IMG/VR virus record: IMGVR_UViG_3300027977_001065
Coordinates: 1 to 32,569 of that record
Direction: 5' to 3' (one strand)
DNA length: 32,569 nt
DNA from: a virus
Shown here one piece after another: positions 6,381-13,937 of the stretch. The position numbers and the translations under genes were made by a program. Within the stretch, counting starts at the first letter, position 1. Each line of letters opens with the position of its first letter. Below the pieces are notes generated by a model. It searched no databases, was not told the origin of the DNA, and saw only the letters and a program-made list of their open reading frames with translations.

Positions 6381-6962
6381 TTAACTCAATATAAAATAAT
6401 CTAACTTACCTTTACGTGTTCTTTTCTTTTTCTGTTCTTTTTGTTTTTTCATTTCTCTATGATGAGCAAGAGTTTCTATTTTAGGTACCTCATCTATAGG
6501 TAAATTCTTTTTTAAAAATTCTGTAAATTGATTATGAAATTCCCTATCTTCGCCAGGCTGTAAAGTTAAATCATCAAAGTTAGAATCTAATAACATTTTA
6601 TGTTTGATTGTAACTTGTTTCTTTTCTTTTTGTATTCTTCTTACAAAGGCGTAATATATTATTTGTGTAAAGTATGCAAAAGGATTATTTGATTTATCAG
6701 GATTAAAGTTATCTAGGTATTGTAAACAATTTTCTATACCATCAGAAATCATATCATCTCTAAAAGTATAATTAATAAAATTCGGTCTGTAAGATAAATG
6801 ATTCGCTATTTTAAGAAAACAAGTTCCAATATAATCCGGTACTCTAGGCTTTGGCAGTTTTTCTTTTTCTGCTTTTTTGACCATCTTCTTGTACTCTATC
6901 ATAGCGGCCAAAAAATCTTTATTACTTACGTAATGTTCTTTTGATTTTTTTGATGTTGTCAT
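6381..6962 (-). CDS. gp55: Late-transcription sigma factor gp55
   Basis: gp55 replaces the host sigma factor on RNA polymerase and directs it to TATAAATA late promoters, many of which are present in this window. The protein is 193 residues (T4: 185). The region from about 45 to 120 resembles sigma region 2: a helix with DYIGTCFLKIANHL, then DDMISDGIENCLQYLDNFNP and FAYFTQIIYYAFVRRIQKE, the typical aromatic-rich core-binding and DNA-melting helices. A basic tail (KKQKEQKKKRTRKGK) follows, ending in a short hydrophobic end (LDYFILS) where the sliding-clamp-binding motif of gp55 lies in T4. It is preceded by a near-perfect sigma70 promoter (6969-6997), consistent with middle or early synthesis before late transcription. 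Confidence 0.93.
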   Translation of the reverse strand: MTTSKKSKEHYVSNKDFLAAMIEYKKMVKKAEKEKLPKPRVPDYIGTCFLKIANHLSYRPNFINYTFRDDMISDGIENCLQYLDNFNPDKSNNPFAYFTQIIYYAFVRRIQKEKKQVTIKHKMLLDSNFDDLTLQPGEDREFHNQFTEFLKKNLPIDEVPKIETLAHHREMKKQKEQKKKRTRKGKLDYFILS

Positions 6963-6968
6963 AATTTA

Positions 6969-6997
6969 AATATACTATACTTTGTATGTTTTGTCAA
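6969..6997 (-). promoter_or_regulatory. Strong sigma70-type promoter for gp55 and downstream genes
   Basis: On the minus strand a consensus TTGACA (6992-6997) is separated by exactly 17 bases from TATATT (6969-6974), a few bases before the ATG of gp55 at 6962. It would give host-polymerase-driven expression of gp55, the two oxygenases, gp47, gp46 and deformylase. The leader is very short and lacks a Shine-Dalgarno. Confidence 0.75.
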
Positions 6998-7030: not shown

Positions 7031-7058
7031 TTGACTTATTTTGTTTATTGTGTATAAT
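7031..7058 (+). promoter_or_regulatory. Plus-strand sigma70-like promoter, opposite to all genes
   Basis: TTGACT (7031-7036), a 16-base spacer and a perfect TATAAT (7053-7058) lie in the 132-base gap between gp55 and the 135-residue gene. No plus-strand protein gene follows, so it would start a non-coding transcript near 7065. Confidence 0.5.
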
Positions 7059-7064
7059 GAGCGT

Positions 7065-7120
7065 GTAGCGCTTTCAAGTGGAAGATTCTCCAGATTAATG
7101 GAGTATTCTTTCTTTATCTC
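7065..7120 (+). ncRNA. Possible small antisense RNA
   Basis: This is inferred only from the promoter at 7031-7058. The predicted transcript would contain a hairpin CTCCA/TGGAG (7088-7092 with 7099-7103, loop of 6) followed by a T-rich run, a weak candidate for an intrinsic terminator. An AGCG/CGCT stem (7060-7063 with 7069-7072) lies at its very start. It would be complementary to the last codons and stop region of the minus-strand gene at 7095-7502. The 5' and 3' ends are estimates. Confidence 0.3.
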
Positions 7121-7502
7121 TAAACTCGTCCCACAATTCATTAAATTCATCATTTTCCTCACGTGTTAATTCTTCAGTTTTATATTCGCCTCGTTTCGGC
7201 AAATCAATTCTTTCATATTTGGAAGAAACATCTAAGTAACTTTTTGACATTTCTTCTGTGGCGTTTGTGATTGTCATTATCTTATCTTTTGGTATAGATA
7301 TAATCTGGTCGTTAGTATAGGCCGTCCATTTGATTAATGCGATAAAGTCTTTAAGACCTCTTGGTGTTAATTGTGATACGTATTTAATTTGCAACGGTTT
7401 TACTAGACGTAAAAGAGGAGATTTATCTGGCAATTGTTCTGGTGCCAAACTACAAACAATATCATCTCCGTTAATTAACTTAACTATTCTTATTTGTTCC
7501 AT
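7095..7502 (-). CDS. Conserved hypothetical protein (135 aa) next to uvsW
   Basis: I do not recognise a named family. The N-terminus (IRIVKLINGDDIVCSL) followed by a beta-rich stretch recalls the Sm-like small-barrel pattern seen in several phage proteins, but this is a weak impression. The C-terminal third is charged and acidic (TREENDEFNELWDEFRDKE). Its start overlaps the uvsW stop region by 23 bases. A CATAAATAGTA late-promoter-like element (7512-7519) sits nine bases before its ATG, so it could have late expression in addition to read-through from uvsW. Proteins of this kind are, as far as I recall, common next to uvsW in marine T4-like phages. Confidence 0.75.
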   Translation of the reverse strand: MEQIRIVKLINGDDIVCSLAPEQLPDKSPLLRLVKPLQIKYVSQLTPRGLKDFIALIKWTAYTNDQIISIPKDKIMTITNATEEMSKSYLDVSSKYERIDLPKRGEYKTEELTREENDEFNELWDEFRDKERILH

Positions 7503-8991
7503 TGTCTTTACTATTTATGAGTTCTATATTATGTATTTCGTAGTTAAAGCCTTCAGAAGTGTATATGTTAATACGTTCTCTAAAATGTTGTAATGTATAA
7601 TTGTCTTTGCCATTGTAACTAAGATCATCAGATATATCATAAAGTGTGGCAGCCGAATTATTATCTTTTAATCTTAAACCTCGGCCAATAGATTGCAAAT
7701 TACGAATACGAGATTTTGACGGCGATGCAAAAACAATGTTGTGTAAATTTCTTATATTAATACCTGTACTAAATGTTCCATAACTGGCGATTATAATTGC
7801 GTTATCAGATTTTTCGGTTATAAATCTTATCTTCTCTCTTTCTTCAGCTTCTACACCACCATAAACGAAAAAAATCTTTTTATTTTCTGCCTTTTCTTCT
7901 ATTAATTTTTTTAATAATACACCGTGTTTTTCTACGTACTGAAATAATACTAAAGAATTGCCTTGTAAATTTAAACATAGATTACGAATATATTTGTTTC
8001 TTCTTTCATTTGAAACTAAAAAATCCATTTCTTCCTGATAACTTTTATTCTTCATAAAGTCTTTTGAATATTGGTCATACTGTAATATTAAACATATAAT
8101 TTTTAAATCAGCTAATTGTTTTTTCTCTTGTAATTCAGCAGTTGAGGTAACTTTATTTACGGCACCAAACAGGCCTTCTAAAACTAATTTATTCGTTTTA
8201 GTGCCATCAAGTGTACCTGTTAAACCATAACGATATTTGCAATCTTCAAGTTTAGTCATTATCTTACTTAAAGAAACGGCCTTAAATAAATGACATTCAT
8301 CACCTATTACCATACCAAATTGACTAAACCATTTTTTTGGTAAATTATAAATTGATTGCCAAGTAGATATAATTACATTTTTATTTGTTTCTTTTTCGTG
8401 GCCTTGATATATTCTGTGTACATTTTTATCAGTATTCCAACCATAATCTTCAAAGTCTTTAAATAATTGTTCAACTAATGATGTTGTTGGCACTATAATC
8501 AATATCTTATTATTTGTTTTTTCTTTCAATCTCAATATATTAAATCTTACTAATAGATAAACAATTAATGATTTACCTGATGCTGTTGGCGATAATAATA
8601 AACAACGATTCTTTTTTAAGCCGTGTATAAAGGCTTCTATCTGATAATCTCTTAACTCTAAAGGTATTCTTAATGCTTTAATAAAACCATCAACGGCCTT
8701 TACATCAACTTCTGTATCTTTTATTTTAGTGCCATCTACTACTTGTATTTTATTATCTTCACACCATTTAAGTATATAAGGATAAAGGCCAGTAAAGATT
8801 TGGCCAGTTGCATAAGAAAATAATCTTATTTTACCGTCCCAAAAACGATTTCTAAATTGTGGTGTGAATTTATAGCCTGGCACTTCAAACGTAAAGTATT
8901 CACCTAATTCTCTCCGTATAGCATCATCTGCTTCTACTTTAAGATATACTTCGTTTTTTTTATCTATGATTATATATTTGGTAAGTGTCAT
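7480..8991 (-). CDS. uvsW: UvsW DNA/RNA helicase
   Basis: UvsW is a superfamily-2 helicase that unwinds R-loops and branched DNA. In T4 it switches replication from origin-dependent to recombination-dependent mode and drives branch migration. With the ATG at 8991 the protein is 503 residues, the same as I recall for T4 UvsW. The N-terminal domain (about 1-105) precedes the Q-like RDYQ box. Motifs are SPTASGKS (Walker A, Lys140), GDECH (motif II, about 230-234), YGLTGT (motif III, about 255-260) and QSIGRGLRL (motif VI, about 433-441). An ORF extension to 9024 would reach into the upstream gene and is unlikely. It follows the oxygenase at 8997 with five bases between. Confidence 0.95.
   Translation of the reverse strand: MTLTKYIIIDKKNEVYLKVEADDAIRRELGEYFTFEVPGYKFTPQFRNRFWDGKIRLFSYATGQIFTGLYPYILKWCEDNKIQVVDGTKIKDTEVDVKAVDGFIKALRIPLELRDYQIEAFIHGLKKNRCLLLSPTASGKSLIVYLLVRFNILRLKEKTNNKILIIVPTTSLVEQLFKDFEDYGWNTDKNVHRIYQGHEKETNKNVIISTWQSIYNLPKKWFSQFGMVIGDECHLFKAVSLSKIMTKLEDCKYRYGLTGTLDGTKTNKLVLEGLFGAVNKVTSTAELQEKKQLADLKIICLILQYDQYSKDFMKNKSYQEEMDFLVSNERRNKYIRNLCLNLQGNSLVLFQYVEKHGVLLKKLIEEKAENKKIFFVYGGVEAEEREKIRFITEKSDNAIIIASYGTFSTGINIRNLHNIVFASPSKSRIRNLQSIGRGLRLKDNNSAATLYDISDDLSYNGKDNYTLQHFRERINIYTSEGFNYEIHNIELINSKDNGTNKNS
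7512..7519 (-). promoter_or_regulatory. Late-promoter-like CATAAATA before the 135-aa gene
   Basis: The minus strand reads CATAAATAGTAAAG, sharing the ATAAATAGTA core with the elements before gp21, gp13 and the gene at 30604. It lies inside the uvsW 3' end and only nine bases from the next ATG, so the leader would be almost absent. Confidence 0.35.
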
Positions 8992-8996
8992 ACATA

Positions 8997-9557
8997 TTAA
9001 ATAAATTGTGGACCAACCGACCAACCTACTAATACTTTTCTTGTACCAAATGTAACAGTATTTACTTTATGCCAAACAAATGATGGAAATGATATAACTG
9101 TGCCTAATGTAAATTTATTGTTAAACTTTGTATTAATGTGTTTTTCTGGTTTTGGATTTGGATTTGATATTTCAAATTCACCGCCTTCGTAATCTTCATT
9201 TAAACATAATGTGAAACTTATTTTTCGTATATATCCGTTAGGATATGGTTTACTATGACTATCAATGTGCCAATCATAATGGTCATTTATTTCATACACT
9301 GTATATTGTAAAGGTTCAAACTCTCTTAATACAAAATTCCATTTAGCCTTTTTATTGTGTTCTAATATAATATCGTTAATGTCTTTATTTAATTTAGTAT
9401 CTGTTAACCAACTTACTTTTGATTTTCTATTATTTTTATTACCATCTTGTATTGTGGCTTCTTGTAATTGACCAGATTCGGCTAAAGAAATAATTTCATC
9501 ACAGTATTTTTTACCAAAATGACCAATAGAAATACAATGATTATTTTCTAAGTACAT
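8997..9557 (-). CDS. 2OG-Fe(II) oxygenase, prolyl-4-hydroxylase-like
   Basis: This 186-residue oxygenase has the P4Hc-type pattern: YTVYEINDHYDWHID with H97-x-D99 as iron ligands, LNEDYEGGEFEI (119-130) typical of the core strands, then SFPSFVWHKV with distal His163 and TRKVLVGW with Arg173 for 2-oxoglutarate. Family members hydroxylate proline in proteins or other substrates. Similar proteins are widespread in T4-like marine phages without an assigned target. The gene is sandwiched between uvsY and uvsW, and its ATG shares a base with the uvsY stop (TAATG), so translation is coupled. All key residues are present and I expect an active enzyme. Confidence 0.88.
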   Translation of the reverse strand: MYLENNHCISIGHFGKKYCDEIISLAESGQLQEATIQDGNKNNRKSKVSWLTDTKLNKDINDIILEHNKKAKWNFVLREFEPLQYTVYEINDHYDWHIDSHSKPYPNGYIRKISFTLCLNEDYEGGEFEISNPNPKPEKHINTKFNNKFTLGTVISFPSFVWHKVNTVTFGTRKVLVGWSVGPQFI

Positions 9558-11380: not shown

Positions 11381-11414
11381 AAAAAAAAAGGGCCGGTTGT
11401 TTAGACCGACCCTT
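11381..11414 (-). terminator. Intrinsic terminator after gp23
   Basis: On the minus strand GGGTCGGT pairs with ACCGGCCC (8 pairs including one GU, loop of 7), directly followed by nine T residues. This is the clearest Rho-independent terminator in the window. The next gene starts only 14 bases further on, so some read-through must occur unless the weak ACTAAATA at 11372-11379 acts as a late promoter. Confidence 0.85.
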
Positions 11415-11420
11415 TAATTG

Positions 11421-13929: not shown

Positions 13930-13937
13930 TATTTATA
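13930..13937 (-). promoter_or_regulatory. Late promoter (TATAAATA) for gp22-gp23
   Basis: An exact match to the T4-type late promoter box recognised by the gp55 holoenzyme, with a leader of about 50 bases before the gp22 ATG. It lies between gp21 and gp22, so it can supply the high scaffold and capsid demand independently of the upstream genes. Confidence 0.75.

What the first reader, a model, noticed from the sequence alone, without database searches (positions are those of the whole stretch)
7031..7125. Plus-strand promoter and possible antisense RNA in an otherwise all-minus genome segment
TTGACT-16-TATAAT on the plus strand, two stem-loops and a T-rich tail, with no protein gene downstream. 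The transcript would be antisense to the end of the 135-residue gene and lies head-to-head with the gp55 promoter at 6969-6997, so it could tune gp55 or block read-through from uvsW. Phage small RNAs of this kind are seldom annotated.
Basis: seen in the sequence. Interest (0 to 1): 0.55.

Follow-up and report, generated by a model that had tools for sequence, protein, structure and literature searches.

The report
Conserved antisense promoter beside phage gp55
A strong promoter that points backwards into the recombination genes of marine T4-like phages, and drives no protein there, is kept at the same spot in nearly every relative examined, with a small hairpin built around its start point, so it is a real and so far unexplained control element rather than a chance match.

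Summary
The promoter is real and strongly conserved; the proposed small RNA is not. TTGACT-16-TATAAT at 7031-7058 (+) recurs, always antisense to gp55, in 80 of 80 gp55 relatives (0 of 80 on the other strand, 20 of 1600 shuffles) and in 12 of 13 marine Kyanoviridae-type records, against 0 of 4 Straboviridae. It drives no conserved ORF. Its predicted start lies a nearly fixed distance (median 27 nt) past the stop codon of the 135-aa gene, whereas gp55 can be hundreds of bases away. The second stem-loop and T tail are confined to close relatives (5 of 80), and the transcript is not consistently structured. In cyanophages the same promoter precedes ORFs elsewhere (20 of 25) but none beside gp55 (0 of 83). 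Best reading: a head-on sigma70-type promoter acting in cis by antisense transcription or collision at the 3' end of the uvsY-uvsW-135aa unit, where 1 of 80 loci has an intrinsic terminator before gp55. An R-loop origin remains possible. No transcript data were available.

The parts
7031..7036 (+). -35 hexamer TTGACT
   Evidence: TTGAC[A/T]-like in 80 of 80 relatives
7053..7058 (+). -10 hexamer TATAAT, 16-nt spacer
   Evidence: spacer 16 in 72 and 17 in 8 of 80 relatives (counted by eye)
7059..7073 (+). Start-site inverted repeat: arms GAGCG 7059-7063 and CGCTT 7069-7073 (one G.T pair), loop TGTAG 7064-7068
   Evidence: arms covary across phages: native stem score 8.40, arm-swapped 4.77 sd 0.43, 0 of 2000
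7065..7065 (+). Predicted transcription start (G of TGT, 7th base after the -10)
   Evidence: TG[T/C] with G at the 7th or 8th base after the -10 in 271 of 272 elements; inference from sigma70 spacing, not mapped
7066..7125 (+).
   Evidence: MFE -12.5, z -1.72 for the window; hairpin and tail only in close relatives
7095..7502 (-). 135-aa gene (phrog_471 'methylamine utilization'; DUF6561 below its cut-off), whose 3' end the transcript overlaps
7480..9024 (-). uvsW-like helicase, next gene crossed by the antisense transcript if it is not terminated
   Evidence: phrog_16, E 1.2e-104
6969..6997 (-). gp55 promoter TTGACA-17-TATATT, divergent from the plus promoter
   Evidence: score 11 of 12 in 65 and 10 in 12 of 80 relatives
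6381..6962 (-). gp55 late sigma factor
   Evidence: phrog_234, E 1.5e-62

Best explanation
This is a strong host-sigma70-type promoter that marine T4-like phages (Kyanoviridae and relatives) keep facing backwards at the 3' end of the uvsY-uvsW-135aa unit. It makes a non-coding antisense transcript that starts about 27 nt past the stop codon of the last gene. Most likely it acts in cis: RNA polymerase loading and leaving here meets polymerases arriving from uvsW head-on, and the antisense RNA pairs with the 3' end of that mRNA. That keeps the recombination unit low while host-sigma transcription dominates, and it insulates gp55, which has its own divergent promoter, in place of a terminator. 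The hairpin around the start site is a feature of the promoter (open complex, promoter escape or displaced strand), not of a finished small RNA. Shown here: presence, position, orientation, conservation, covariation of the arms, lack of a conserved ORF, lack of recognisable terminators. Inferred: that it is transcribed, the start base, that collision or antisense is the function, and the timing.
For: Conservation and strand: 80 of 80 vs 0 of 80 opposite strand vs 20 of 1600 shuffles; 12 of 13 marine Kyanoviridae-type records. Distance: start to 135-aa stop median 27 nt, IQR 21-36 (n = 248); to gp55 up to 623 nt. Same promoter and leader in cyanophages: 20 of 25 places elsewhere lead into an ORF of 40 aa or more, 0 of 83 at gp55, so the gp55 copy is non-coding. 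Intrinsic terminator between the 135-aa gene and gp55 in 1 of 80. Covarying arms. In E. coli a promoter placed antisense at the 3' end of a gene represses it in proportion to its strength (PMC4731013, passages seen).
Against: No transcript data. 26 of 114 pelagiphage-type copies do have an antisense ORF of 40 aa or more within 66 nt, which I take as chance but did not test by selection analysis. It is not shown that uvsY-uvsW-135aa is late in these phages: TATAAATA sites on - in the window end at 13937, upstream of a strong - terminator at 11415-11387. The start-site hairpin is not needed by this model, and 25 of 77 arm combinations have no stem of 4 bp or more with at most one mismatch. Melnitz has only a degenerate copy. 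The terminator rule is strict and finds few in shuffles too, so absence of weak or Rho-dependent terminators is not shown.
Confidence: 0.45

Rival explanations
1. A transcription-primed (R-loop) replication origin, as at T4 oriF/oriG or the early-promoter origin oriE. The short transcript primes leading-strand synthesis and the start-site hairpin holds the displaced strand open; UvsW from the neighbouring gene later removes the R-loop.
For: Conserved promoter without a gene; start-site repeat whose non-Watson-Crick pairs fit folding of the + (displaced) strand (G.T in 19 arm combinations, A.C in 0); purine-rich first ~18 nt; sits beside uvsW/uvsY; T4 origins are promoters and UvsW unwinds their R-loops (PMC3016281, passages seen).
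Against: No clear A+T-rich unwinding element: the first 30 nt are less A+T-rich than the surroundings (0.565 vs 0.688, 0.593 vs 0.676), with only slight excess further on. Third-position GC skew shows no sharp switch at the element in four genomes. Cyanophages use the same promoter and leader before ordinary genes. The G.T counts come from few lineages.
Confidence: 0.15
2. A trans-acting small RNA of about 50-60 nt ended by the local hairpin and T tail, regulating phage or host mRNAs.
For: In the window and its close relatives the hairpin is stable (MFE -12.5, z -1.72) and has a T-rich tail (5 of 80); the first 48 nt after the -10 are identical between the window and L003 although the -35/-10 spacer differs.
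Against: Across 64 non-redundant elements the transcript is hardly more structured than shuffles (mean z -0.33, 19 of 64 below -1). Sequence beyond about +16 is not conserved between groups. No Rfam family.
Confidence: 0.15
3. The start-site repeat is an operator: a phage or host dimeric regulator binds it and switches this promoter and, in cyanophages, the few other promoters with the same arms.
For: Exactly two exact copies in Syn9 (AACACTG[T/C]CAGGGTT) and in S-RIM8, each directly after a -10; arms agree within a genome.
Against: Arms change freely between phages while complementarity is kept, which fits structure better than a protein's sequence code; no clear excess of further inexact copies over a shuffled genome in Mosig, HTVC008M and S-RIM8 (Syn9 7 vs 1, both strands of the same two sites included).
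Confidence: 0.12
4. A promoter for a small protein not recognised as a gene.
For: 26 of 114 pelagiphage-type copies have a + ORF of 40 aa or more starting within 66 nt.
Against: 0 of 83 in cyanophages; in several relatives the ATG over the 135-aa stop is followed at once by a stop; the window's longest + ORF here is 42 aa with a TTG start before the -10.
Confidence: 0.05

Closest known systems
Antisense promoters at gene 3' ends / transcriptional interference (synthetic parts in E. coli, PMC4731013, passages seen)
   Same: A promoter just past the stop codon pointing back into the gene; predicted strong; no product gene.
   Different: Natural, conserved across a phage family, no recognisable terminator between gene and promoter, and a hairpin around the start site; activity not measured.
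T4 replication origins oriF, oriG, oriE (PMC3016281, passages seen)
   Same: A promoter without need of a gene, near uvsW/uvsY-type functions.
   Different: No A+T-rich unwinding element found, -35 intact rather than a MotA-type middle promoter; no replication evidence.
T4 early promoters (sigma70-type; recalled)
   Same: Host-sigma -35/-10 with strong consensus; in cyanophages the same element precedes CpeT-like, RusA-like and small unknown genes.
   Different: T4 itself has no such element upstream of gp55; a start-site repeat is not known to me for T4 early promoters.
RNAs in T4-like cyanophages: CfrI, PhotoRC-II, wcaG, manA (PMC9964418 and PMC2864571, passages seen)
   Same: Non-coding elements in marine T4-like phages.
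   Different: Those are structured or photosynthesis- and metabolism-linked RNAs; no Rfam family matched here.

Membership tests
sigma70-type promoter | -35/-10 near consensus with 16-18 nt spacer | tested here: met
   11 of 12, spacer 16; 80 of 80 relatives at 10 of 12 or more
sigma70-type promoter | purine start 7-8 nt after the -10 | tested here: met
   G in TG[T/C] at 7th/8th base in 271 of 272; start not mapped
sigma70-type promoter | transcription from the site in infected cells | not testable with these tools
   no RNA data held; the Syn9 transcriptome paper I recall is not in the library
cis antisense / interference promoter | points into an opposing gene with no sense gene of its own | tested here: met
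cis antisense / interference promoter | lowers expression of the opposing gene | not testable with these tools
   needs promoter mutants
T4 R-loop origin | promoter within ~100 bp origin | tested here: met
[quoted passage not shown]
T4 R-loop origin | early replication start or autonomous replication | not testable with these tools
   GC skew only, no sharp switch
structured phage small RNA | conserved RNA secondary structure | tested here: not met
   mean z -0.33 over 64
structured phage small RNA | intrinsic terminator | tested here: not met
   5 of 80 loci, mainly the window's own group
Rfam families | match at the curated score | tested here: not met
   0 in the window; the one sub-threshold hit is a plant snoRNA at E 0.35 on the other strand

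The most novel reading that the evidence does not exclude
Marine T4-like phages use a promoter architecture not described to my knowledge, in which the start base sits in the loop of a hairpin whose arms, discriminator and initial transcribed sequence, are under selection to stay complementary on the non-template strand. The hairpin forms when that strand is displaced and sets promoter escape or a persistent R-loop. The family-wide copy at gp55 uses it without any gene, to police the border between the recombination unit and gp55 or to prime replication.
Probability: 0.3. Interest if true: 0.78.

Novelty: new variant of a known kind. Interest (0 to 1): 0.58.

Why it matters
Kyanoviridae-type phages of Pelagibacter, Synechococcus and Prochlorococcus are among the commonest marine viruses (general knowledge), and how they order transcription is poorly known: I recall that they lack T4's MotA/AsiA middle system. 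A non-coding promoter kept at one spot across the group, beside the late sigma factor and the R-loop helicase, is a concrete handle on that question. The start-site hairpin with covarying arms is a promoter feature that can be tested in vitro directly.

Tried and rejected
Small-protein gene: rejected for lack of a conserved ORF. Structured small RNA: folding and terminator tests failed family-wide. The hairpin acting in the uvsW-135aa mRNA (minus-strand RNA): disfavoured, since no A.C pairs (G.U on that strand) occur while G.T pairs do. Operator with many sites: no clear excess of copies in Mosig, HTVC008M or S-RIM8, and only the two promoter copies exact in Syn9. Origin by GC skew: inconclusive. 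tRNA or tmRNA in the window: none. Rfam: none. Host mimicry: the pattern in 84,980 bacterial/archaeal species genomes gave 12 hits, none titled SAR11 or cyanobacteria; the five Firmicutes hits of these 12 that I checked lie just upstream of tRNA-Leu genes. Literature: ten listings showed no paper on a promoter or RNA between gp55 and uvsW in these phages; the library lacks most subscription papers, so this is weak evidence of novelty. Sullivan et al. 2010 (PMC3037559, passages seen) predicted promoters by program in cyanophages, but I could not see whether this one was listed. Counted by eye rather than by script: the spacer lengths.

Limits of the counts: searches stopped at 120 stretches each, some contigs recur among loci, and 21 of 118 and 31 of 120 loci were not gp55-linked (29 of the 31 listed, the 21 not followed). 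The 64 and 77 non-redundant sets drop near-identical elements. The first terminator rule missed a clear case (L073) and was replaced; both results are given.

Full report
What the window is. The window is a 32.5-kb IMG/VR fragment of a T4-like marine phage. Its gp55 is closest, among named phages, to that of Pelagibacter phage Mosig EXVC030M (80% identity). Around the finding all recognised genes are on the minus strand, in reading order uvsY, a 2OG-Fe(II) oxygenase, uvsW, a 135-aa gene (phrog_471), gp55.

The observation. Because promoter-like matches as such are no more frequent than in shuffles (104 vs 100.6), I tested conservation. In 80 gp55 relatives (64-97% identity) a promoter scoring 10 of 12 or more with TG[T/C] at the start position lies within 800 nt upstream of gp55 on the antisense strand in 80 of 80, on the gp55 strand in 0 of 80, and in 20 of 1600 shuffled sequences. 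Of 17 named records it is present in 12 of 13 marine Kyanoviridae-type ones; Melnitz has only a degenerate copy seen by eye. It is absent at that score in 4 of 4 Straboviridae (T4, V09, AC4, 60AhydR15PP), where the neighbouring genes differ.

Searching for the element without using gp55. A pattern of the promoter plus start region was searched in all viral contigs. The pelagiphage-type pattern gave 118 new loci, 97 of them beside gp55 or uvsW in the same orientation; the cyanophage-type pattern gave 120 loci, 89 of them so placed. The same pelagiphage-type pattern in one genome for each of 84,980 bacterial and archaeal species gave 12 hits.

Where it is anchored. The predicted start lies a median 27 nt (IQR 21-36, range 1-223, n = 248) past the stop codon of the 135-aa gene, while the distance to gp55 runs up to 623 nt; in L073 and L080 a tRNA-Gly gene lies between the element and gp55. 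The element therefore belongs to the 3' end of the uvsY-uvsW-135aa unit. Between that unit and gp55 an intrinsic terminator was found in 1 of 80 loci (L073), with a strict rule whose shuffle rate is 0.1%. gp55 has its own promoter: 11 of 12 in 65 and 10 in 12 of 80 loci.

The hairpin. Directly after the -10 comes a short inverted repeat with TGT in its loop. TG[T/C] puts a G at the 7th or 8th base after the -10 in 271 of 272 elements, where sigma70 usually starts, so the repeat straddles the start: one arm is the discriminator, the other the initial transcribed sequence. The arms differ widely between phages (for example AACGG/CCGTT, GGACT/AGTCC, AGGC/GCCT, CAGCG/CGCTG, AACTC/GGGTT) but stay complementary. 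Swapping 3' arms among 80 distinct combinations lowers the mean stem score from 8.40 to 4.77 (sd 0.43), with 0 of 2000 swaps reaching the native value; with one combination per distinct 5' arm (n = 38) the figures are 8.62 and 4.77 (sd 0.65), again 0 of 2000. An earlier composition shuffle agrees (10.1 native, 5.9 shuffled, 7.25 in a downstream control; 44 of 64 with a score of 9 or more). Of 77 combinations 23 have a perfect stem of 4 bp or more, 19 one G.T, 0 one A.C, 10 another mismatch, and 25 no such stem. G.T without A.C points to folding of the plus, non-template, strand, but the 19 come from few lineages.

The transcript. From the normal start, 54 nt are not consistently more structured than dinucleotide shuffles: mean z -0.33, 19 of 64 below -1 (window -1.72), 7 above 1. 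A plus-strand terminator within 160 nt occurs in 5 of 80 loci (shuffle rate 1.3%), mainly the window's own group. Sequence is conserved to about +16 in cyanophages (GTCAGGGTTCAAGGGAA-like) and then lost.

The same promoter elsewhere. In Syn9 and S-RIM8 there is exactly one further exact copy of the start-site motif, each after a -10, ahead of homologous small genes. Among non-gp55 cyanophage places 20 of 25 non-identical leaders run into an ORF of 40 aa or more within 66 nt, including CpeT-like, RusA-like and unknown PHROGs; beside gp55 it is 0 of 83. In pelagiphage types it is 26 of 114, with no shared reading frame seen: in several the ATG is followed directly by a stop. I read these as open frames antisense to coding sequence, but did not test them for selection.

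Mechanism. A strong opposing promoter just past the last stop codon is the layout that in E. coli represses the gene in proportion to promoter strength, by interference and antisense RNA (PMC4731013, passages). Together with the missing terminators this makes a cis role at the uvsW unit and insulation of gp55 the best reading (0.45). If uvsW is late here as in T4 (PMC3016281, passages; not shown in these phages), an early sigma70 antisense promoter would help keep it off early. The R-loop-origin reading (0.15) fits the displaced-strand hairpin and the neighbours, but lacks an unwinding element and a skew signal.

Confidence. That the promoter is real and selected: about 0.95. That the start-site hairpin is selected: about 0.85. 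That it is non-coding at gp55: about 0.85. What it does: 0.45 for the cis reading. No RNA or replication data were available, and the Syn9 infection transcriptome that I recall was not held.

Noticed in passing
L344:9492-9833, L284:857-1312, L289:2421-2879, L256:9677-9877, L281:2860-3084: In cyanophage contigs the same promoter and leader (TAxxAT-AAC..TGT.AGGGTTCA) directly precede RusA-like, CpeT-like and unknown PHROG genes, so it may define a small early regulon.
   Followed up: partly
Syn9 52741-52810 (L242) and S-RIM8 41931-42000 (L241): Second exact copy of the start-site motif in each genome, upstream of homologous ~70-aa proteins a few genes before a baseplate wedge gene.
   Followed up: partly
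L243, L244, L246, L247, L254: In Sporosarcina and Clostridium genomes the same -35/-10/TATGTCGC-like start pattern lies just upstream of tRNA-Leu genes; a similar start region may mark strong stable-RNA promoters.
   Followed up: partly
L073:2879-2953 and L080:2890-2964: tRNA-Gly (gcc) inserted between the antisense promoter and gp55; in L073 an ATTTCGG..CCGAAAT terminator with a T run also sits there.
   Followed up: partly
L032, L048, L061, L074, L081 (upstream of gp55): Roughly 130-170 extra bases separate gp55 from the element in these loci while the element stays next to the 135-aa gene; the inserts look alike and were not identified.
   Followed up: no
window 11387-11415 (-): Strong intrinsic terminator (11 pairs, T-rich tail) upstream of the methyltransferase-uvsY-uvsW group; it may separate late structural genes from this unit.
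   Followed up: no
L090, L094, L109, L114, L120, L144, L158 and others (21 of 118 loci): Loci with the promoter pattern but no gp55 or uvsW, several sharing an AGACTATGTAGCCC-type leader; context not examined.
   Followed up: no
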